A stretch of DNA of 64,000 nucleotides from a bacterium SCSIO 12643 (lineage in GTDB: Bacteria; Bacteroidota; Bacteroidia; Flavobacteriales_G; Salibacteraceae), in assembly GCA_024398135.1 (NCBI GenBank), contig CP073750.1, positions 2,728,001 through 2,792,000 of the forward strand, in the 5' to 3' direction. The notes beneath the pieces were generated by a model. That model saw only the letters and a list, made by a program, of their open reading frames with translations, was not told the DNA's origin and did not search any database. Position numbers and translations under genes: made by a program. This document shows positions 6,099 to 27,352 of the stretch, in pieces; the stretch's first letter is position 1; each line of letters opens with the position of its first letter.

Positions 6099-6497
6099 TT
6101 AGTTGAACGCATTCCAAATTTGCTCAGTCGGTTGTAAATTCTCATAAAGTTGTCGGCCATTTGGGAGCTCATTTATTCTATATTTTCTGAATTCGGAATC
6201 ATACCAGGAACCAAATTCTTTTTTGAATTCTAATGAAGCACCAGTGACATAGTACCATTTTTTCTCAGCATCTCCAGGCCTGGCTCCAAAAAATAAAAAG
6301 CCATAATAATCTTGGGCAATGGATAGAGAATCAACATTTTTATATGTCCGTTTTTCTTCTGTTTCCCGGTCAAAAATCAACTCAAATTTTTTAGGGTTGT
6401 TTTTCTTTAAATAAACTCCATCCTTCAACTCAATGGAATCAGAACAGCTTATTATTAAAGTCGAAAGCAATATCCAAACAAAATTTGTTTTCACCAT
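6099..6497 (-). CDS. Hypothetical lipoprotein
   Basis: Not recognised beyond localisation. It has 132 residues with a lipoprotein signal peptide: hydrophobic WILLSTLII followed by the lipobox-like ISC and a Ser-Asp start of the mature chain. The mature part has short beta-type segments (KFELIFDRETEEKRTYKN, WYYVTGASLEF) and no known motif. It is transcribed away from the decarboxylase gene at 6748, with a strong palindrome in the shared upstream region. Confidence 0.6.
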   Translation of the reverse strand: MVKTNFVWILLSTLIISCSDSIELKDGVYLKKNNPKKFELIFDRETEEKRTYKNVDSLSIAQDYYGFLFFGARPGDAEKKWYYVTGASLEFKKEFGSWYDSEFRKYRINELPNGRQLYENLQPTEQIWNAFN

Positions 6498-6560
6498 TTA
6501 TAATTAAATACAATAAATGGCTAAAGATAAATCACCCCGTTAAATTGTCAATCTACTCAG

Positions 6561-6596
6561 GTATAAATACCCGATTTTTAAAACGGGTATTTATAC
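6561..6596. repeat. 36-base palindrome between divergent genes
   Basis: The two arms, GTATAAATACCCG at 6561-6573 and CGGGTATTTATAC at 6584-6596, are perfect inverted repeats of 13 bases around a 10-base AT-only centre. It lies between the divergent lipoprotein (start 6497) and decarboxylase (start 6748) genes. There is no T-run after either arm, so it is unlikely to be a terminator. An operator for a dimeric regulator, or an RNA hairpin in the long 5' leader of the decarboxylase gene, are the likelier readings. Confidence 0.7.
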
Positions 6597-6747
6597 TATT
6601 AAAATTATTCAGCATTAATCAGAGATTTGGAATGCAATCAAGAGCAAGAATTTATAAGAGTAGCTACGATCACTTTTGGATTGCGGGGGCAAAACCTGAA
6701 AACCCTGTTAAAAACAGAGTAGGGAATAACAATTTAATTAAAACATC

Positions 6748-8010
6748 ATGAGTGAAATTACACCCATTCAACTTCCAACACCTATAGATTGGAATACAAA
6801 AAAAGAAGCTGCAGAACAACATATTGCTGCGCTTGATCTGATCTTTGCGAATTCAAGAAACCTTTTGTTATATCTGGATGCATTGTCGCAAGTATGTTCA
6901 GAGCAAAACATCCAAAGTAGAGGTAAGACGGCTTCTTACTGGTTACCGTACCTGCATCGTGAAAAAAACTTGAAGGACTTTTTTACAGAGTGGTTGACAT
7001 TTACGCCACCACCATCAACTCCAGAGACACCGGAAGGTCCTGGGAAGTATATTGTATACTGGGATTACTTCGTAAATACAGACTCAGGTTTAATATTGGT
7101 GAATGATACAGATTTCAAACCCTGGTTCCGTTCGTTCTTAAATTTCCATGGAGACTGGATCAACAGTACATCTTCTACAGGGACTTTAAGCCAATGGATG
7201 ACCTATTCAGGTACAAATGCACATCCTTTTAATATCAATGATTATGAAGTTCCTGAAGGAGGATTTGCATCTTTTAACCAGTTTTTCTTACGTAATTTAA
7301 AAGAGGGTCAAAGACCATTGTGTACTGCTGGACCGGATGCTGATGTAATTGCAGCGCCATGTGACGGTGGAATCTTTTACTTAACGCGTGGCAATATCAT
7401 AGAGAATGTTGCGGATGCTGCTCAGGTAGCGAGCAAAACATATGATTTACCGGGTAAGTCAGATCGTTTTGATTTATTACAGGCGATCCCTGGATATGGA
7501 CGAAATTTCCTGGGTGGACCATTGTTAGATATTCTACTTTGGTTTACGGATTATCACCATTTCCATGCACCGATTTCAGGTAGAGTTATCGAGCAGGGCT
7601 TATATGAAGGTTCGTATAATTATGATTTTGGAGATTATGATCCAAAAGATCATTATGCACCAAATTTACCGCCTGATAGCGATCGTGTAGGTTGGTACGA
7701 AAAATTAGGGAAACATCAGCGTTATGTTTGGGTGATTCAAACTGAAAATCTGGGGCTCGTAGCTATGATAGCGATTGGCTTCTGGGGTGTTGGAAGTATT
7801 GAAAATGCAATCGAAACTAATGCGGTCATTGAAAAAGGACAATACATGGGACACTTCGGTTATGGAGGTTCATCTATTGTATTAGCCTTTGAACCAGGAA
7901 TGGATTTACAGTTTAAAGTAGGTGAAAAACCTGTTGAAGACCCTGACCATCCGGTACTCATGAAGGTGAGACAATGTCTGGGAAAACGCACAGATGTAAT
8001 TAACTGGTAG
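6748..8010 (+). CDS. Phosphatidylserine decarboxylase-family pyruvoyl enzyme (PsiD-like architecture)
   Basis: A 420-residue protein. The C-terminal half is a PSD catalytic domain: FNQFFLRNLKEGQRPL (around 178), APCDGG (about 207), DYHHFHAPISG (about 270, the HxxHxP-type motif), and GGSS (about 373-376). In GGSS the enzyme would self-cleave between Gly and Ser to form a pyruvoyl group. The N-terminal ~150 residues are not part of classical Psd. They resemble the accessory domain found in fungal PsiD-type decarboxylases that act on amino acids such as tryptophan. No transmembrane segment is visible, unlike membrane-bound Psd. A soluble decarboxylase of a free amino acid or related metabolite is therefore an alternative to phospholipid synthesis. 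The gene converges on the glycosyltransferase operon and shares a terminator with it. Confidence 0.8.
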   Translation: MSEITPIQLPTPIDWNTKKEAAEQHIAALDLIFANSRNLLLYLDALSQVCSEQNIQSRGKTASYWLPYLHREKNLKDFFTEWLTFTPPPSTPETPEGPGKYIVYWDYFVNTDSGLILVNDTDFKPWFRSFLNFHGDWINSTSSTGTLSQWMTYSGTNAHPFNINDYEVPEGGFASFNQFFLRNLKEGQRPLCTAGPDADVIAAPCDGGIFYLTRGNIIENVADAAQVASKTYDLPGKSDRFDLLQAIPGYGRNFLGGPLLDILLWFTDYHHFHAPISGRVIEQGLYEGSYNYDFGDYDPKDHYAPNLPPDSDRVGWYEKLGKHQRYVWVIQTENLGLVAMIAIGFWGVGSIENAIETNAVIEKGQYMGHFGYGGSSIVLAFEPGMDLQFKVGEKPVEDPDHPVLMKVRQCLGKRTDVINW

Positions 8011-8020
8011 TTAAAAACTA

Positions 8021-8053
8021 AAAGTCCTGAAGAATGCTTCAGGACTTTTTTTA
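8021..8053. terminator. Bidirectional rho-independent terminator
   Basis: A perfect 12-base stem (AAAGTCCTGAAG at 8021-8032 and CTTCAGGACTTT at 8037-8048) has a 4-base loop and a T-run to 8052. The A-run on the left allows it to work for the minus strand as well. It sits between the convergent decarboxylase gene (end 8010) and the last gene of the minus-strand operon (end 8063). Confidence 0.9.
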
Positions 8054-8062
8054 TGTTTTGTT

Positions 8063-9031
8063 TTACTCCTGAGCTACCAGGTATCGATCTGCTATGATTT
8101 TCTGCTGGAGGAGTTCAATGTCCAGATTCCCATGATCATCTGTCGCGATATAGTTGGGCTCCGGTAAATATCTCAATTGAAGATGTGGATGATATACCGT
8201 TTTTCTACCTTTTCGGAAATACGCGCACATCACCGAGAAACTACTGTTGGAGCATACCAGAATATCAGCTTCCACAAAGGCCTTAAAAATGGAATGAATC
8301 TGGTCGTAATTCTTTTCTTCTCGATTTGAACCAATATGTACGGAGGTATGATTTCTTGTACTAAATCGATCTACGATATCTTCTGAGTTTTCTTTTTCTG
8401 TGTAGATGTTGAAATACACATTCCCGATTCCATATGCCTTTTCGATATGTAGAAGGATATTTTCATAGTAATCCATGTCAAACATGTATCTCACTGCAAA
8501 CGGTGTGGTAAAATGATGGGGAAATTTTTCTTTATCGTAATCGGTTCCCCGGTTAATATGCATGGCCACTTCGATGGGCGATTTGAAATCTGTAACACTT
8601 AAAGAATGCAAATCATTGAATTTGCTGGATGCTTCTTCTTGAATTTCAGAAAAGATATTCCGATCTGTTTTTCCTTCCAGATACCAGGGAATCGTTTGGA
8701 AAGGGTGGATTCTTAGCGCATTTTCAAATACGACTAAAGTATCATCATTCCTTTCTGGGAGAGCTTTGTCAAAATATTCTAAGAGTTCATCATAGTCATC
8801 TATACCACACCAAAGTGGGCCTTCTACGCGTACCACGCGTTTATATTTTGATAATCGTTCGGATTTCTCTACAATCGGACATTGGTACCCAAATCCGAAA
8901 TAATCCAGATATTCATATGGGGTATGGACAAAGTTTAGGTTCATTAATTTGCCAATGGTTAAGCCTCCCAATGCATCTTTAAGTTGATGTCCGTGATTTC
9001 CTCCTGATGTAAATTCTATTGTAAAATCCAT
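8063..9031 (-). CDS. Fucosyltransferase-like glycosyltransferase (GT-B type)
   Basis: A 322-residue cytoplasmic protein. It opens with FTSGGNHGHQLKDALGGL, a G-N-x-G-x-Q-type loop seen in GT11/GT23-like fucosyltransferases. The HINRGTD segment (about 174-180) corresponds to their HxRxGD motif, which binds GDP-fucose. Near the C-terminus, IHSIFKAFVEADILVCSNSSFSVMCAY gives the conserved region of sugar-nucleotide binding in which the SNSSFS motif is typical. The exact donor sugar is inferred, not proven. It is the last gene of the six-gene operon 8063-14009, 12 bases after its upstream neighbour. Confidence 0.65.
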   Translation of the reverse strand: MDFTIEFTSGGNHGHQLKDALGGLTIGKLMNLNFVHTPYEYLDYFGFGYQCPIVEKSERLSKYKRVVRVEGPLWCGIDDYDELLEYFDKALPERNDDTLVVFENALRIHPFQTIPWYLEGKTDRNIFSEIQEEASSKFNDLHSLSVTDFKSPIEVAMHINRGTDYDKEKFPHHFTTPFAVRYMFDMDYYENILLHIEKAYGIGNVYFNIYTEKENSEDIVDRFSTRNHTSVHIGSNREEKNYDQIHSIFKAFVEADILVCSNSSFSVMCAYFRKGRKTVYHPHLQLRYLPEPNYIATDDHGNLDIELLQQKIIADRYLVAQE

Positions 9032-9043
9032 AGTATTGATGGG

Positions 9044-9817
9044 TTAATTAATGATTTGGGTGAGATGATTGGATGAATCGAAAACCTGATCCACATGATC
9101 ATTTCCGTCCAGGTATTCGTATCCATGTCTTTTTTCTCTACTGATGTCACTCATACGATGCACATACCCTTTATGTTTTTGGTATAAATAATCTCGTCCG
9201 AGATATTTAAAATGCAATAGTTTTAGTTCTATTAACGGTTCTACAATAATGCCTTCGTAAAACTCTGGATAGCAGATATGGGCTCCCGGACGGTAGTTTA
9301 TTTCTTTAATTCTTTTAGGATCAAATATGATGTTCTTGTCAAAGCGACATGATTTAACTCCTCGCTTCACTTGTTCGGTAATGAGTTGATCATAGTCTAC
9401 AGGAAATTCCGGATGCATCATATTGTAACCCGTAATCATAGGCATTGCTATATGTTTTTCTTTTGCGAGCTGAAGTTTTTCTATGAGATGGTCATCATAT
9501 AAAAACTCATCCATATCACAAACAATGACGTAATCAGCTGTACTTCCTTTCCAACAATTGTTTCTGGATTCGGTTAAAACATCTTCAATAAATTCATTAC
9601 CCGAGTCCAGTGTTTTAATCTCTACCTTTTTGAATCTACGCGCGAATTGGATAGATTGATCAGTGCTTTGATTATCTATAACGGTGATTTTAGAACAGAA
9701 TTTAGAGTAATAGTTCAATGTATGCCGTATCATTTTGGCTTCATTAAAACAAAGCACATAAAGTTCAATATGGAGATCTGTATTTGAAGTCATATGTTTA
9801 CTCTCTGGAATCAACAA
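9044..9817 (-). CDS. Glycosyltransferase family 2 (Glyco_tranf_2_4 type)
   Basis: A 257-residue GT-A enzyme. LYVLCFNEAKMIRHTLNYY (about 17-35) is the nucleotide-binding start. VIDNQSTDQS (46-55) and CDMDEFL (about 100-106, a DxD-type metal-binding motif) follow, and the later HFKYLGRD region is typical of the PF13704 class, often found in polysaccharide or glycoprotein glycan loci. Its start overlaps the adenylating enzyme gene by 20 bases, so the two are translationally coupled. The start at MLIPESKH could be at Met9 instead. Confidence 0.8.
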   Translation of the reverse strand: MLIPESKHMTSNTDLHIELYVLCFNEAKMIRHTLNYYSKFCSKITVIDNQSTDQSIQFARRFKKVEIKTLDSGNEFIEDVLTESRNNCWKGSTADYVIVCDMDEFLYDDHLIEKLQLAKEKHIAMPMITGYNMMHPEFPVDYDQLITEQVKRGVKSCRFDKNIIFDPKRIKEINYRPGAHICYPEFYEGIIVEPLIELKLLHFKYLGRDYLYQKHKGYVHRMSDISREKRHGYEYLDGNDHVDQVFDSSNHLTQIIN

Positions 9818-10973
9818 TCAGAGGTGTTTTTGAAGTAGTTGGATTGGCGTATAGCTCGGATTCGGAAACCAGTTCTACCTCTAGTTTTAGAAATGCAGGA
9901 TTCATATCTAAGGTTTGATGCAAAGCATCAGTGACTTGTTGGACGATTTGATGTGATTCTTCTTTTTTGCAATCTGATTTAATGACTAAGAATTTTAATT
10001 GGGTCAATACACTAGAAATCATAGAAAGCTGAATTTGAAAACGATCTACAATATCTAAAAGCTCATCAAAGTCATTTAGAAAATAGGAGTTGGCTTCAAT
10101 GGAAAATGATTTGGGTGCTCTGGATTTCAATACCAGAAATCGTTTGTCATTTTTATATTCCAATTTACCGACATCGCCCATGGCATATCTAAAAACAGGA
10201 AAACGCTTTCGTAATAAGTTGGTAACTATTATAGTGCCGTTACCTTCCAGGTCAGGATTTTCTATTTCTACAATGATGTCGTCAAGAATTTCAAAAGAGG
10301 TGGTATTACCCGTATATGTGGACCATCCCCAAATTCCGGTTTCAGCAGAGCCGTATAGTGAGTAGATACATTTTGTATTGAATACCTTTTGAAAAAGTTC
10401 TACCTGGGACTCCAGAACATATTCTCCTGCAAACATCAAATTATCGACAGAAACACTTAGGTCATTGTCAGATAGATATTTGGCAAATAAGGTTAGAACG
10501 GATGGGGTCCCAATCAACATATTGGGTTTGAACTTGATGCAGGTGGTGTGCATAAAATCAAATGAAGATTTAGACCCAAGAGGAATCGTAGTTGCCTGAC
10601 AGCGTTCCAAAATATCATCCAAAATTCCGGCTGAACGATACATATCACAATAGCTAAATAAATTTAAGGCAATGGTTTTGGAATTAAACATTCCATATCG
10701 GATCAGTTCTTTTGCTAGTAATTCTCTCTGGTATAGATTCTCTTTGATGTCAACCGGAAAGATTAAGGGTTTGTCTGTGGAGCCCCCGGAACGTACTAAA
10801 TAGACCCCTTTAGTTTCGGATTGGAGATCAAATTGATCCTCCAATACATCTCGAAGTATATGTTTCTCCATCACTGGTGGAGTTGAAGTATAACCCACGT
10901 GTTGGTAATAGTTCTTGAATAAAGGAGATTCCCTGACGATGGAAAAATGATCATGTAATCGTTTATCTATCAT
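9798..10973 (-). CDS. PaaK/CapK-like adenylate-forming enzyme
   Basis: A 391-residue ANL-superfamily enzyme close to phenylacetate-CoA ligase / CapK. The P-loop-like motif is YLVRSGGSTDKP (about 58-69). PNMLIGTPSVL (about 152-162) and YSLYGSAETG (about 203-212) give the adenine-binding loop, and FRYAMGDVGKLE (about 260) carries the conserved Asp for ribose. A small C-terminal domain follows. Such enzymes activate carboxylic acids as acyl-adenylates, then pass them to CoA or another nucleophile. No carrier protein gene is visible in the cluster, so the acceptor may be CoA, an amine or a sugar. It is one base from the upstream GT2 gene. Confidence 0.8.
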   Translation of the reverse strand: MIDKRLHDHFSIVRESPLFKNYYQHVGYTSTPPVMEKHILRDVLEDQFDLQSETKGVYLVRSGGSTDKPLIFPVDIKENLYQRELLAKELIRYGMFNSKTIALNLFSYCDMYRSAGILDDILERCQATTIPLGSKSSFDFMHTTCIKFKPNMLIGTPSVLTLFAKYLSDNDLSVSVDNLMFAGEYVLESQVELFQKVFNTKCIYSLYGSAETGIWGWSTYTGNTTSFEILDDIIVEIENPDLEGNGTIIVTNLLRKRFPVFRYAMGDVGKLEYKNDKRFLVLKSRAPKSFSIEANSYFLNDFDELLDIVDRFQIQLSMISSVLTQLKFLVIKSDCKKEESHQIVQQVTDALHQTLDMNPAFLKLEVELVSESELYANPTTSKTPLIVDSRE

Positions 10974-10974
10974 G

Positions 10975-11910
10975 TTATGAAGTTATTTGGAGAAAATTTC
11001 TGAGTAGGAAGTATCTGAATTGATTCCAAAACAGGTATTTGTATTTATAGATGAAAATAAGCTTCTGTTGCATGGTATTGAGATTGCGAATGCAGTAGCG
11101 TAACCACCGTTTACCAACGACCCCCATCATCAGTTTATCGTAAGTGTCATTGCTTCCTTTAAATGTGATCAGTAGAGGAGGGTAGTAGGCTTCCTTCCAA
11201 TGCTGGAACCTCTTACGAGATGCGCTACCTGGAACTTCACGAACTTTAAGTCGGTCGCCCATTAAAAGTCCGATACTGTCGCTTTTGTGTTTGAGAATAT
11301 GTTTTAAAACACGATACCAATAATCAATACCTTCGTAGAAATTAGGCTTTTCATAGAATTTGAACGCCTCCATCCATTTTCTTTTGACGATCAGATTACT
11401 CCCTACGCCCATTAAAAATTCCATTGATGTGACCACTTTTAAAGGTTCTTCCATGCGATATGCATCCGGAATAATGGTGGCTAATTTTTGATTGAGTTTT
11501 CTTAGGTCTGGAGAGACTTCATTACTTGGAAATAAATGAATCCCTACGACTAAAAAATCAATCCCTTGAGATGACATGAGTTCATCTGTTGTTTCTAATA
11601 AATCCGGAGCGTAAATATCATCAGCGTCTAAAAAACTGACGGCATCTCCTGTGGTTTTTTCAAAACCTATATTTCGGGCACGACCAACCCCTCCGTTTTT
11701 TTCAAGTTCAATGATTTCAATTCGTACTTCATTAAACTTTGAAGGGAGACGATCTAAAAAAGCTTTTGCTTTTTGGAGACTACCATCGGTACTTTGATCA
11801 TCTACAATAATCAGTTCATGAGGCAGTTTCGTTTGGTCAAATACGGATTGCAATGTTTCTTCAACATAATTCACTTTATTGTATAACGGAACGACTATAG
11901 AAAACTTCAT
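10975..11910 (-). CDS. Glycosyltransferase family 2
   Basis: A 311-residue canonical GT2 enzyme. FSIVVPLYNKVNYVEETLQS (3-22) is the nucleotide-sugar binding start. IIVDDQSTDGS (34-44), GGVGRARNIG (74-83) and FLDADD (93-98) give the DxD metal site. The C-terminal part is basic and aromatic (FRYFLLRNFLQ), perhaps associating with the membrane. Its start overlaps the stop of the ATP-grasp-like gene by four bases (ATGA), a sign of coupled translation. Confidence 0.9.
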   Translation of the reverse strand: MKFSIVVPLYNKVNYVEETLQSVFDQTKLPHELIIVDDQSTDGSLQKAKAFLDRLPSKFNEVRIEIIELEKNGGVGRARNIGFEKTTGDAVSFLDADDIYAPDLLETTDELMSSQGIDFLVVGIHLFPSNEVSPDLRKLNQKLATIIPDAYRMEEPLKVVTSMEFLMGVGSNLIVKRKWMEAFKFYEKPNFYEGIDYWYRVLKHILKHKSDSIGLLMGDRLKVREVPGSASRKRFQHWKEAYYPPLLITFKGSNDTYDKLMMGVVGKRWLRYCIRNLNTMQQKLIFIYKYKYLFWNQFRYFLLRNFLQITS

Positions 11911-13172
11911 GATGGATCTGATGTTGCGCTGGGTAAAATATAGCCTCCACTGTGTACATTGATTACACTTTTGGACGAACCTCTGAAGATTCCCGTCCCA
12001 AAGAATCGATCGTTATGGCATAATAACATTCCAACGATATTTATGGATTCGTTTTGATCATGGTTATTGAGTTCAAATTCCTGTTGATCCACATATTCCT
12101 GAACCATGTATTGAGACCATTCGTTGGTAATGACGTCAGTCCATTCTTGAGATGTACAATCATCTTTAACATAAATATCGATCCCACGACCACCACTGTT
12201 TTTTTTGAGGGCCCAATTGGATGAAGAATGTATAAGTCGGTGTCTTATTTGTTCCGAATCGAGGGTATATGAAGGAATCAGAAAACGTCTTAAAAAAGCA
12301 TAGTCTTCTGGCCTTAGATAATCAGACATAATGGATTGATTATACAGCACCGAAAGGATTCGTTTATCATGAACGAGAATAAGCGTACGTACATCGTTTA
12401 AACATTTTTTTGATTGAACGAGTGCTTTGATCACTTCCGGTTTGATACGTTTCAATTCTTCCCGATCCAGTTCAAGAATGAGCTGTTCAGCGATTTCTCC
12501 ATTTACTGTAAGTTCTCCATGAGTAACTTCTAGTTTTTGAGTTGAAATATCTGCAATTGAAAAACCATGTTTATTGATTTCATCAAAAAATTGATAAGCT
12601 TCCGTTCCTTTTTCATCTTCATGTACATAGTACAATGGGGCATTAGAATCTAAACTGCCGGCAAGTACAGATACGAATTCAGTCTGTTTGGGAATAGCAT
12701 GCCAATCGTGGTTTATGGTTGGAGAGAGTTCGTCCAGAATTAAATTCATATAATAGCTCAACATCCATCCATTCAAAGGATATCTACAACCGATCTCGCA
12801 AATTTTGGATTGTCCATTTTTATCGATGACAAAATCCGGACGATAAAGCCCCACTTCATATGGAGTAGGGGCTGCGATTTTTAATATGGATTCCAATTCG
12901 GAATCTAATTGATAGATGTTACGTATTCTCTCATCTTCAAAATAATGCGTTACGACCTGATGAAGCGCACGTTCCAATATGCTGCATAATTTGCTATACG
13001 CATTTAGTTGAGTGGATTCTACCTCCACGGGAACATTCATAAACGTATTCTTACCATTGAAAGGAATATCTTTAAAGTATTTCCTAAGCTCTGGTAATAA
13101 ATCTGAATAATCTAGATGCGTTTTGGAAAGCGAAATGGCATATGTGTCTTCAATTTGTTTTGGGGTATTCAT
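11907..13172 (-). CDS. Circularly permuted ATP-grasp-like ligase
   Basis: A 421-residue protein with features of permuted ATP-grasp folds such as the glutathionylspermidine-synthase-like group. RPDFVIDKNGQSKICEIGCR (about 114-133) matches the R-x-D-(x)n-E metal/substrate strand, which comes before the nucleotide-binding lobe. Later WALKKNSGGRGIDIYV (about 312-327) supplies the lysine and glycine-rich loop, and YMVQEYVDQQEFE (about 349) the second ATP strand. Known members ligate amines to carboxylates through acyl-phosphates. It is the second gene of the operon, 18 bases after the helical protein. The fold call is moderately sure; the substrates are unknown. Confidence 0.6.
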   Translation of the reverse strand: MNTPKQIEDTYAISLSKTHLDYSDLLPELRKYFKDIPFNGKNTFMNVPVEVESTQLNAYSKLCSILERALHQVVTHYFEDERIRNIYQLDSELESILKIAAPTPYEVGLYRPDFVIDKNGQSKICEIGCRYPLNGWMLSYYMNLILDELSPTINHDWHAIPKQTEFVSVLAGSLDSNAPLYYVHEDEKGTEAYQFFDEINKHGFSIADISTQKLEVTHGELTVNGEIAEQLILELDREELKRIKPEVIKALVQSKKCLNDVRTLILVHDKRILSVLYNQSIMSDYLRPEDYAFLRRFLIPSYTLDSEQIRHRLIHSSSNWALKKNSGGRGIDIYVKDDCTSQEWTDVITNEWSQYMVQEYVDQQEFELNNHDQNESINIVGMLLCHNDRFFGTGIFRGSSKSVINVHSGGYILPSATSDPS

Positions 13173-13190
13173 GTGTGGTTTATTTGAAGA

Positions 13191-14009
13191 TTATACGAAA
13201 CTTTCCTCAGCAATTTGAGCGTTTAAAGTCGCCATCACTTTAGACTTTAAATCCAGATAATCGGTAATAATTTCTTTTAAATCATAATCCTGAATGTTGA
13301 TGTCAAATGCTTTGGAGAATGAATTCACTGCATCTACTGCATGGAAGAAATGGTTTTTCTCTGTTGGTCCGCAGTGTACACTGATCCATGCTAATGACTT
13401 TTTGATTTCAGAATCAGAGAAATCCGTTTCAGCTTTTAACCAGTTTTCAAATAATGGAATAATAAATTCCACTTCACCATGTGTATAGATTTCGTGTACG
13501 AGTGTGGTCAACAGTCCAATCATGATGTCTTTATTTCTTAAAGAGTTTTTATCCTTCCAGGCTTTGAAGTTGATCGCTTCTGTATTTAAATATTTATTTG
13601 ATAGCCAGGAATCATCACCGGAGATATTGGTCGCCATCGTGTAAAATAATTTTGAGTGTAGCACGTGTCCCACTACAGCCAAATCTTCATCTACAATTCG
13701 ATTCAAGCTCGCCACGGATTTAAACAGGTCGTGTTCGCTTCCTACGGGTTGATCTTTATGTACGATCATAGTCATTCGGTTACTTAAGCCGGCAACGGTT
13801 ACCGCACTGTTGTTGGTTTGGCTCCAGCTTTTAAAGAATGATCTAAGCGTGTCAGGGTCTTGCTTTCCTGATGTAAGTGCTCTAAATGCATTTTCGATGG
13901 TTTCAAACTGGACCTTTTGTAAAGGGAAATAGGTTAATAATTGTGATTTGATATGTGAATCCTCCATTTGATCAATCACAGGTGTGATAATTGAAATTAA
14001 GTTGTTCAT
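13191..14009 (-). CDS. All-helical protein, possible heme-oxygenase-like di-iron enzyme
   Basis: Not recognised by a single strong motif. The 272-residue sequence is almost wholly helical and has a ligand pattern like heme-oxygenase-like di-iron oxidases: Glu and His seven apart in EDLAVVGH (about 113-120), Glu/His pairs in LVHEIYTHGEVE (about 171-182), and HCGPTEKNHFFHAVDA (about 213-228) with Glu and His three apart. Members of that fold do oxygen-dependent N-oxygenation, decarboxylation or desaturation on amino or fatty acids. The spacing of the first His in the last motif differs by one from CADD-like enzymes, so the call is tentative. It is the first gene of the six-gene operon, so it may also be the product's defining tailoring enzyme. 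Confidence 0.45.
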   Translation of the reverse strand: MNNLISIITPVIDQMEDSHIKSQLLTYFPLQKVQFETIENAFRALTSGKQDPDTLRSFFKSWSQTNNSAVTVAGLSNRMTMIVHKDQPVGSEHDLFKSVASLNRIVDEDLAVVGHVLHSKLFYTMATNISGDDSWLSNKYLNTEAINFKAWKDKNSLRNKDIMIGLLTTLVHEIYTHGEVEFIIPLFENWLKAETDFSDSEIKKSLAWISVHCGPTEKNHFFHAVDAVNSFSKAFDINIQDYDLKEIITDYLDLKSKVMATLNAQIAEESFV

Positions 14010-14227
14010 AGTGTTTGTTTATAATTGTTTTAGTTCGATTCAGTGTTATGAATGCTTGCTTGTGGAGAGTCGCAAACAAGAGCATATTTGACAGCTATAA
14101 ACGTAACGGGGTTATACAAGAAATAAAACGAGGTAATTACCTGTTTTAAGAAACTGGTGGAAATTACTTGATTAAGGGGAATGAGTTGTTTCCTTTTTAG
14201 TTTAAGGTTAGATTACCTGAATTGAAT

Positions 14228-14262
14228 AAAAAAAGCCAATCATTTTGATTGGCTTTTTTTAG
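14228..14262 (-). terminator. Rho-independent terminator after the outer-membrane protein gene
   Basis: The stem AAAGCCAATCA / TGATTGGCTTT has a TTT-type loop and runs of A and T on both sides. It lies about 20 bases past the stop at 14280 and ends that minus-strand transcript before the biosynthetic operon. The 220 bases between it and the start at 14009 hold no gene; they should contain the operon promoter, which I could not place. Confidence 0.85.
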
Positions 14263-14279
14263 ATTTTAAATAATAAATG

Positions 14280-15365
14280 TTATTTGGTTTTATTGTTATT
14301 CGAATGATTATTTATCACCCAATTCACTCTAAAACTATAAGAAGTGAAGTTATCCCAATCTGTGTTGATTTTCGAATAACTGGGTTGAGGTAAAGAGGTA
14401 TAATCAAAAGCAATGTTCAGTGGGATTTTAGTGAGTTTACTCAATGGAATCTGAATTCCAAATCCGTAAGTGATTTCGCTAAGATGATCCACATTGCTAT
14501 CCGGGAAACCATAATCATTATGATTTTCATAATAGTATCCCATACGTAGAAATAGCATTTCTAAGAATCCTACTTCTAATCCGGAATGGAAACCTGTTTG
14601 GTATTTAGAGTTTAATAAGAATTTATATTCAGCCTGAGCTAGAAAGCTAAAAGTATGAAGCGTGTCAAATAAATAGTTTCGGTCTAGAAATACATTGTAA
14701 TTTGCACCAATACGTGAAATTACTGGCAGGGTATCTATATGGGTATTGTTATTATAATTCAATTCAATTTTTGCGAAGTTTAAGTTGGTGATACTTGTTC
14801 CAATATTGAGTGATTGGTTCTCAGAGTCTCCAATTTCAAATTTCTTAATTATCCCAAAATCCAGAAACAGAGTATTAAAGGACTGGTCGATAGGCTCCCA
14901 AATCATGTAGTTGGTGTTTAATCCAATAAACCAATTTTTTATAGGTTCTGATGAAAGATTTAGCGTGTAAAATGTGTTTTGGGGCCTTGATGTTTTTGAA
15001 TTGCCGTTTTCATCTGTAAAGAGAATATCTGTCTCCAGTGAAAGATGATTTCTACTGAATCCAACGGTAAGGTATTTATTGAAGTTATACCCTGCACTAA
15101 TGAAGTTGAAATATGCATCTTCGGCAGTGTATAATGGACTCGCAAATGAAGAATATAACTCAAGCCCTTTTAAGGTAGCGGTACCCGCAGGATTGTAGAA
15201 TATAGAGGATAGGTCACCCTCAATGGAAGCATAGGCTTTACCCAATGCTTCTGATCTGGTACTGGGTTGTCGGACAAAAAAAGATTCTTTTAAAAATCCA
15301 TCATCGTATTGCGCAAGAGTTATGAATGGGAGAATAAAGATTAAAATTACAATTGATTTTTTCAT
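14280..15365 (-). CDS. PorV/PorQ-family outer-membrane barrel
   Basis: A 361-residue protein with signal peptide MKKSIVILIFILPFITLAQ. Then FFVRQPSTRSEALGKAYAS and SIFYNPAGTATL (about 56-67) match the N-terminal plug region of FadL-like PorV/PorQ proteins, in which R-x-x-ALG and NPAG are conserved. The remainder is a regular barrel with aromatic girdles, ending SFRVNWVINN. PorV-type proteins deliver T9SS cargo to the sortase, but close paralogues have unknown roles. It is monocistronic with its own terminator. Cargo carrying a T9SS tail occurs at 44371. Confidence 0.7.
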   Translation of the reverse strand: MKKSIVILIFILPFITLAQYDDGFLKESFFVRQPSTRSEALGKAYASIEGDLSSIFYNPAGTATLKGLELYSSFASPLYTAEDAYFNFISAGYNFNKYLTVGFSRNHLSLETDILFTDENGNSKTSRPQNTFYTLNLSSEPIKNWFIGLNTNYMIWEPIDQSFNTLFLDFGIIKKFEIGDSENQSLNIGTSITNLNFAKIELNYNNNTHIDTLPVISRIGANYNVFLDRNYLFDTLHTFSFLAQAEYKFLLNSKYQTGFHSGLEVGFLEMLFLRMGYYYENHNDYGFPDSNVDHLSEITYGFGIQIPLSKLTKIPLNIAFDYTSLPQPSYSKINTDWDNFTSYSFRVNWVINNHSNNNKTK

Positions 15366-26828: not shown

Positions 26829-26960
26829 ACAGATTTTGAAAGCCAAAATGCGATGCATTTTAGTGCTTTTTTATTCCCACTCCTCATTGGAGCACGCTTC
26901 ATTCGGATGGAAATAAAAAAGCCGATTCATCAATTGATGAATCGGCTTTCAAAATCTGTG
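26829..26960. repeat. Inverted repeat flanking the ssrA terminator
   Basis: CACAGATTTTGAAAGCC occurs on the plus strand near 26828-26844, and its reverse complement GGCTTTCAAAATCTGTG at 26944-26960 overlaps the last bases of ssrA. Both arms are followed, reading outward from the shared motif, by a hairpin and a run of T ending in TTTTTTATT-CC. So the 3' flank of ssrA has an inverted, partly drifted duplicate. Confidence 0.55.
26918..26950 (-). terminator. ssrA terminator
   Basis: A perfect palindrome AAAGCCGATTCATC / GATGAATCGGCTTT around AATT, followed on the minus strand by a T-run. It starts about ten bases beyond the ssrA 3' end. Confidence 0.9.
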
Positions 26961-27352
26961 GAGTCGGAGGGATTCGAACCCTCGTCCAAACAAGCAAACA
27001 TTGAGCTTTCTACAAGTTTAGTCAGTGCTTAATTTTCGAAAATAAGCTGGCCACTAACAGCCCACTTAAAACTTAGCTTCGTTAATCTCGAATTTGAACA
27101 GAAGCCGAACAAATCCTAACCCAACTTTAATGGTACCCTGGGTGAAATAAACCGCTAGGCAGGGTCTATCTCAGGGCATCTCGTCCCCCTACCTTGTAGA
27201 GTGGATGAAGCGTAATTCACTTGGTGAATTAGGCAGCAAGAGCGTAATTATTTTCGCCTGTTAAAATTTGCAGTATTGAATTAAAGAGCCATACCACAAG
27301 GCTCCACTTGCTTACAAAACGGTTGACCTCGCTGTCAAAACCAGTCGACCCC
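26957..27352 (-). ncRNA. ssrA: Transfer-messenger RNA (tmRNA)
   Basis: This RNA rescues stalled ribosomes. The 5' end starts GGGGTCG at 27352 and pairs over seven bases (one G-U) with CGACTCC of the 3' end, followed by A; the terminal CCA is not encoded. The T-arm is the GGTTCGAATCC region (26970-26982). The tag frame at 27229-27258 reads GGC (resume codon) and then ENNYALAA and a stop: GENNYALAA is the usual flavobacterial tag. The RNA is a single-piece (not permuted) molecule of about 394 bases. Its 3' end is duplicated downstream, so it has served as an integration target. Confidence 0.95.

What the first reader, a model, noticed from the sequence alone, without database searches (positions are those of the whole stretch)
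8063..14009. Six-gene operon resembling an uncharacterised glycosylated small-molecule pathway
Seen: six same-strand genes with overlaps or gaps under 20 bases: possible di-iron enzyme, permuted ATP-grasp, GT2, PaaK-like adenylating enzyme, GT2, fucosyltransferase-like enzyme. No carrier protein, PKS or NRPS is present. Known: adenylating enzymes and ATP-grasp ligases join acids and amines; the GTs attach sugars. Inference: the operon could make a glycosylated amide or amino-acid conjugate or modify a surface glycan with an acyl/amide group.
Basis: inference. Interest (0 to 1): 0.7.

Follow-up and report, generated by a model that had tools for sequence, protein, structure and literature searches.

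The report
Carrier-free glycosylated pseudopeptide gene cassette
Six neighbouring genes, four of which recur in the same order in distantly related bacteria, look like a small transferable toolkit for making an unknown sugar-decorated, peptide-like molecule without the usual large peptide-making enzymes.

Summary
In detail: six minus-strand genes (A 13191-14009 down to F 8063-9031) are packed with spacings of -20 to +18 bases, with terminator-like hairpins just outside. Four of them, A-B-C-D, form a conserved cassette, found in that order in 21 of 25 other loci with a close A relative (Bacteroidota, Pseudomonadota, one Eremiobacterota MAG). Identities of A-D correlate at 0.90-0.97, flanking synteny is limited to close lineages, and occurrence is patchy (2 of 394 other genomes of the window's phylum). 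A has no Pfam family but a heme-oxygenase-like fold (pLDDT 92; Z 19-20 to UndA, HrmI, CADD) and keeps Glu/His residues in the order of di-iron HDO ligands. B is a full-length homologue of Cp1B, the ATP-grasp pseudodipeptide ligase of E-64 (profile E 1.4e-31). D is a compact PaaK-type adenylating enzyme; C and E are GT2; F is unassigned. Best reading: carrier-free synthesis of an oxidised, glycosylated pseudopeptide, E-64/mangotoxin logic plus a glycosyltransferase. Substrates and product are unknown. New variant of a known kind.

The parts
13191..14009 (-). Gene A: heme-oxygenase-like-fold enzyme, probable non-heme di-iron oxidase (HDO type)
   Evidence: no Pfam or PDB sequence match
11907..13172 (-). 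Gene B: ATP-grasp ligase of Cp1B type
   Evidence: R111, D113 and E126 match Cp1B R139, D141 and E163
10975..11910 (-). Gene C: core GT2 glycosyltransferase
   Evidence: PF00535 5.5e-32
9798..10973 (-). Gene D: PaaK-type adenylating (ANL) enzyme
9044..9817 (-). Gene E: accessory GT2 (PF13704); start may be ATG 9793
   Evidence: also in L004 and L005
8063..9031 (-).
   Evidence: also in L004 and L005
8020..8049 (.). Terminator-like hairpin after F, shared with the convergent gene 6748-8010
   Evidence: both strands
14227..14261 (.). Terminator-like hairpin between the upstream gene (14280-15365) and the operon
   Evidence: (listed on the + strand)

Best explanation
The operon is a horizontally spread four-gene core cassette (A-B-C-D) with two accessory genes (E, F) that makes a glycosylated pseudopeptide without carrier proteins. 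Inferred steps: D adenylates a carboxylic acid and passes it to an amine, a hydroxyl or CoA; B phosphorylates a carboxylate and couples it to the amino group of an amino acid, as Cp1B does in E-64 biosynthesis; A, an HO-fold non-heme iron enzyme, oxidises the amino-acid or pseudopeptide part with O2 (the reaction type cannot be told); C puts a sugar on the scaffold, and in the window and two relatives E, perhaps also F, add more. Shown here: gene content, conservation as a unit, predicted fold of A, homology of B, C, D and E. Inferred: metal content and reaction of A, order of steps, substrates, product, and that the product is a small molecule.
For: A-B-C-D in one order and strand in 19 of 23 loci and in both further loci looked at. 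Identities of the four proteins correlate at 0.90-0.97 over 20 loci. A: HO-like fold; invariant E108, H118, E173, H177, E179, H212, E217, H220 even with two 28-30% relatives, in the order of the ligands reported for MboA. B: only solved relative is Cp1B, near full length, with three of its four tested catalytic residues. D: PaaK-type. C: GT2. A relatives elsewhere overlap an NRPS A-PCP gene (Nostoc) or adjoin transporters with AsnC or GntR regulators. No shared small precursor ORF near the cassette.
Against: No biochemical data. Metal-site geometry of A was not seen, and a TenA homologue is within about 1 Z unit of the HDOs (18.5) and is Foldseek's top hit. B lacks one of Cp1B's four catalytic residues (N165 is Gly). 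D's Pfam and NCBIfam scores are below cut-off, and CoA ligase, ester or amide synthetase cannot be told apart. C's solved relatives include polysaccharide transferases. The GT is absent in L006. No exporter is part of the core. L020 and L022 carry A without B-D.
Confidence: 0.55

Rival explanations
1. A surface-glycan decoration set: B and D activate and attach an acyl or aminoacyl group to a sugar, C, E and F assemble a short glycan, and A oxidises the substituent. The product is cell-bound (LPS, capsule or lipid-linked).
For: Three of six window genes are, or may be, glycosyltransferases. C's solved relatives include chondroitin and heparosan synthases and teichoic acid enzymes. No exporter in the core.
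Against: No polysaccharide family among the 14 that match two or more of 124 flanking proteins (partial list). The cassette stands alone in unrelated neighbourhoods. HO-fold oxidase plus Cp1B-type ligase is a small-molecule combination in both characterised cases read (PMC12568646, PMC13185094).
Confidence: 0.2
2. A is not an oxidase but a TenA- or PqqC-like hydrolase or cofactor-independent enzyme; the rest still makes a glycosylated amide.
For: Foldseek's top hit is a TenA homologue (3oql, 5.2e-4), at Z 18.5 in VIA-align; PqqC reaches 16.6.
Against: UndA, HrmI and CADD score 19-20 (differences under 1 are ties), and a Glu/His set in HDO ligand order persists at 28-30% identity.
Confidence: 0.12
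3. A RiPP-type or carrier-bound pathway whose precursor peptide or carrier protein is encoded nearby or elsewhere; B and D modify that peptide or load that carrier.
For: ATP-grasp and oxygenase genes also occur in RiPP clusters (recalled), and one A relative overlaps an NRPS A-PCP gene (Nostoc).
Against: No small ATG-started ORF within 600 bases of the cassette is shared outside close lineages; no carrier protein among the six window genes. A precursor or carrier elsewhere in the genomes was not searched for.
Confidence: 0.08

Closest known systems
E-64 pathway of fungi (Cp1A/Cp1B/Cp1D; PMC12568646: abstract and two sections read)
   Same: Oxygenase + Cp1B-type ATP-grasp + ANL enzyme, no NRPS; B is homologous to Cp1B
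   Different: There the oxygenase is Fe/alpha-ketoglutarate dependent, here it has an HO-like fold; here a GT2 belongs to the core; D is PaaK-type and was not compared directly with Cp1D
Mangotoxin cluster mboABCDEF (PMC13185094: parts 1-3 of 6 read)
   Same: HDO plus free-standing ATP-grasp ligase; carrier-free peptide product
   Different: Mangotoxin has two ATP-grasp L-amino-acid ligases, a dedicated reductase MboB and an arginine deiminase, and its published pathway uses no glycosyltransferase or ANL enzyme; the window operon has no reductase or deiminase
HDO enzymes UndA, HrmI, CADD, BesC, PolF
   Same: Same predicted fold as A
   Different: A matches neither PF14518 nor any solved sequence; its conserved Glu and His in the first pair are ten residues apart (E108, H118) against three in MboA (E86, H89)
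PaaK-type ligases (9s3l, 4r1l, AjiA1)
   Same: D's profile matches them (1.2e-20 to 3.1e-6)
   Different: D's acceptor is unknown, and it sits beside different partner genes

Membership tests
HDO (heme-oxygenase-like di-iron oxidases), gene A | Heme-oxygenase-like all-helical fold | tested here: met
   AF2 pLDDT 92.2; UndA Z 19.8, rmsd 3.2, 239 aligned; HrmI 19.4, 3.0, 219; CADD 19.2, 2.7, 212
HDO (heme-oxygenase-like di-iron oxidases), gene A | Six-ligand di-iron site in the order E-H-E-H-[DE]-H | tested here: inconclusive
HDO (heme-oxygenase-like di-iron oxidases), gene A | O2-dependent iron chemistry | not testable with these tools
   Needs protein
Pfam Haem_oxygenas_2 (PF14518), gene A | Match to the family model | tested here: not met
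   No match in the own genome at E 10; none in 24 A proteins at E 1
Cp1B-type ATP-grasp ligases, gene B | Full-length homology | tested here: met
   Profile 32-403 of 412 against 9cjn, E 1.4e-31
Cp1B-type ATP-grasp ligases, gene B | Catalytic R139, D141, E163, N165 | tested here: inconclusive
   First three invariant in B, N165 is Gly (the PDB chain is offset by 15 residues from the paper's numbering, my count)
E-64 biosynthetic cluster | Fe/alpha-ketoglutarate epoxidase with ATP-grasp and ANL enzyme | tested here: not met
   The oxygenase position is taken by an HO-like fold
Mangotoxin (mbo) cluster | HDO, flavin/Fe2S2 reductase, two ATP-grasp ligases, arginine deiminase | tested here: not met
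   The window operon has one ATP-grasp and no Pfam sign of reductase or deiminase
PaaK-type ANL enzymes, gene D | Homology over the adenylation core | tested here: met
   Profile matches 9s3l, 4r1l and others; Pfam score alone is below cut-off
GT11 fucosyltransferases, gene F | Match to PF01531 | tested here: inconclusive
   No match in the own genome at E 10; fold prediction failed, pLDDT 39.6, so remote kinship is not excluded
RiPP cluster | Conserved precursor peptide near the enzymes | tested here: not met
   No ATG-started ORF of 18-120 aa within 600 bases shared outside close lineages at E 1e-3
O-antigen or capsule locus | Embedded among sugar-nucleotide, flippase or polymerase genes | tested here: inconclusive
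   None among the 14 families matching two or more of 124 flanking proteins; only 25 of 128 families shown

The most novel reading that the evidence does not exclude
The cassette defines a new class of carrier-free natural product: a glycosylated pseudopeptide whose reactive group is made by an undescribed branch of HO-fold di-iron enzymes (no Pfam family, first Glu and His ten residues apart, most conserved gene of the set), moved between phyla as a four-gene unit and decorated differently by lineage (GT2 + F; a second ATP-grasp; an AroE-like gene).
Probability: 0.4. Interest if true: 0.75.

Novelty: new variant of a known kind. Interest (0 to 1): 0.57.

Why it matters
HDO enzymes have brought unusual chemistry (the introduction of PMC13185094 lists O-atom transfer, methine excision, desaturation, nitrile and azetidine formation, and adds alkynes). 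Carrier-free ligases are easily missed because their clusters lack NRPS signatures. A conserved cross-phylum set that pairs both with a glycosyltransferase is a small pathway that could be rebuilt from four proteins, and a handle for finding more.

Tried and rejected
A by sequence against the PDB and Pfam: nothing usable; only the fold search placed it. F: PDB, Pfam, GT11, plasmid tblastn and fold prediction all gave nothing; F is in 1 of 296 genomes of the phylum, the window's own. A in viral contigs: none. B in plasmids: none. B relatives in 9 further genomes of 296 are weak (E 1.5e-7 to 8.1e-5; the two strong ones are the own genome and G337); five of the nine regions were fetched, and none matched any of eight window proteins, B included, by tblastn at 1e-3; not pursued.

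The idea that the convergent neighbour 6748-8010, a PsiD-like decarboxylase, supplies the amine was considered. L010 has a decarboxylase of the same superfamily upstream of A, but at 22.6% identity, and none of the other 22 loci has a match at 1e-4, so it was not adopted.

Literature: nine full-text searches. From titles and abstract starts, none listed a paper on this four-gene set; only two papers were opened. PMC13185094 states that at least 25 cluster types hold an HDO and an ATP-grasp ligase; that list is in a supplement that I could not read, so this cassette may be in it.

Rows dropped: the flank scan used 124 of 168 listed ORFs (all of L020 and L022, very long ORFs and some doubtful overlapping ORFs left out by hand); L008, L009, L014 and L017 had been left out as near-copies. 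Profiles A2, A3 and A4 used 16 of 22 B, 16 of 21 D and 15 of 20 C proteins. Several of the 25 loci are near-copies (L007-L009; L012, L014, L017; L023, L024), so 21 of 25 is not a count of independent events. ORF calls in GC-rich loci are mechanical.
Full report
Observation. The six genes are present as described, with spacings of 18, -4, 1, -20 and 12 bases. Terminator-like hairpins lie just outside at 14227-14261 and 8020-8049 (as a class they are no commoner than in shuffles), so the set is probably a transcription unit of its own.

Conservation. A scan of named genome contigs with A gave 23 loci. tblastn of the six proteins finds A-B-C-D in one order and strand in 19 of 23. L006 has A-B-D without C, L011 ends at a contig edge in B, and L020 and L022 have A alone. 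E and F follow D only in L004 and L005. Hosts of the full core are Tenacibaculum, Flavobacterium, an uncultured Flavobacteriales, Glaciecola, Chromobacterium, Sphingomonas, Azospirillum, Nitrospirillum, two Lysobacterales MAGs and an Eremiobacterota MAG. The set is rare: A is in 0 of 99 other genomes among relatives, in 2 of 394 other genomes of the phylum, and only in the centre genome among 299 and 289 genomes around two carriers. Pairwise identities of the four proteins correlate at 0.90-0.97 over 20 loci; A is the most conserved (mean 59% against 45-48%). In a tree of the joined core the Glaciecola (Gammaproteobacteria) cassette groups with the window and Tenacibaculum rows at SH-aLRT 100, away from the other Pseudomonadota (quick tree, no bootstrap, uneven amino-acid make-up), which fits transfer. 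Conserved flanking synteny is seen only within Flavobacterium, within Chromobacterium, within Azospirillaceae, and between L011 and L016.

Gene A. There is no Pfam or PDB sequence match. The AF2 model (24 rows, pLDDT 92.2) is heme-oxygenase-like. Foldseek's best hits are modest (5.2e-4 to a TenA homologue, then BesC, UndA, CADD and PolF). VIA-align gives Z 19.8 to UndA, 19.4 to HrmI, 19.2 to CADD and 18.5 to the TenA homologue (rows within 1 are tied, and all-helical models can reach 14 by general similarity). With two relatives of 28-30% identity added, the invariant acidic and His residues are E39, E108, D109, H118, D161, E173, H177, E179, H212, E217 and H220. Their order fits the MboA ligands E86, H89, E143, H172, D176, H181 (PMC13185094), but geometry was not seen. 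Outside the cassette A relatives adjoin an EamA transporter and an AsnC regulator (L020), an MFS transporter and a GntR regulator (Azospirillum B510), or overlap an NRPS A-PCP gene (Nostoc). That is consistent with amino-acid chemistry but no proof.

Genes B and D. B's only solved relative is Cp1B, which joins epoxysuccinate to L-amino acids in E-64 biosynthesis, where an ANL enzyme makes the second amide (PMC12568646; abstract and two sections read). Three of Cp1B's four tested residues are invariant in B; N165 is Gly. D is a PaaK-type adenylating enzyme with conserved blocks down to a C-terminal Lys (which motif is which is recalled). CoA ligase, ester or amide synthetase cannot be told apart from sequence.

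Genes C, E and F. C and E are GT2. C's solved relatives include polysaccharide synthases, which does not fix its acceptor. F has no recognised family.

Surroundings. Of 168 flanking ORFs listed, 124 were scanned: 128 families, 25 shown. The 14 that match two or more proteins are hydrolases, peptidases, regulators and the like, none of them a polysaccharide-locus or transporter family. Lineage-specific neighbours: an extra ATP-grasp (PF05770) after D in Azospirillaceae followed by a GT2 in L024 (not tested in the others), an AroE-like gene before A in L016 and L011, radical SAM/SPASM and methyltransferase genes before A in Flavobacterium (tested in L007), and an alanine-dehydrogenase-like gene before A in L006. 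No small precursor ORF is shared outside close lineages.

Interpretation. An oxygenase, a Cp1B-like ligase and an ANL enzyme without carrier proteins mirror the E-64 logic; HO-fold oxidase plus ATP-grasp mirrors mangotoxin. A core GT2 makes a glycosylated pseudopeptide the most economical product. The operon belongs to neither known cluster, because their defining gene sets were tested and not met. HDO plus ATP-grasp as such is in print (at least 25 cluster types), so I rate this a new variant of a known kind. None of nine literature searches listed a paper on this four-gene set, but the supplement that enumerates those clusters was not readable.

Noticed in passing
window 6748-8010 (+): Convergent neighbour: PS_Dcarbxylase family (4.4e-28) whose best solved relatives are L-tryptophan decarboxylases of PsiD type (5.2e-10); L010 8113-9450 has a PSDC + PS_Dcarbxylase gene upstream of A.
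   Followed up: partly
L020 and L022 (Nitrospirillum), L025 (Azospirillum sp. B510 plasmid): A-type proteins without B-D; in L020 beside an EamA transporter and an AsnC regulator, in L025 beside an MFS transporter and a GntR regulator. The genome of L020 carries two A copies, one with the core (L024).
   Followed up: partly
L026 11893-19959 (Nostoc sp. UHCC 0926 plasmid pn1): A 28% relative of A overlaps an NRPS A-PCP gene, followed by a 1664-aa NRPS-like ORF; no features are annotated there in the collection.
   Followed up: partly
L007-L009, about 6400-9800: Upstream of A in Flavobacterium: a 217-258-aa ORF without Pfam match (L007), a radical SAM/SPASM gene and a methyltransferase gene, in three close strains; they may belong to the pathway.
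   Followed up: partly
window 26958-27352 (-): tmRNA gene with tag peptide ENNYALAA, the only tRNA or tmRNA gene found in the window.
   Followed up: no
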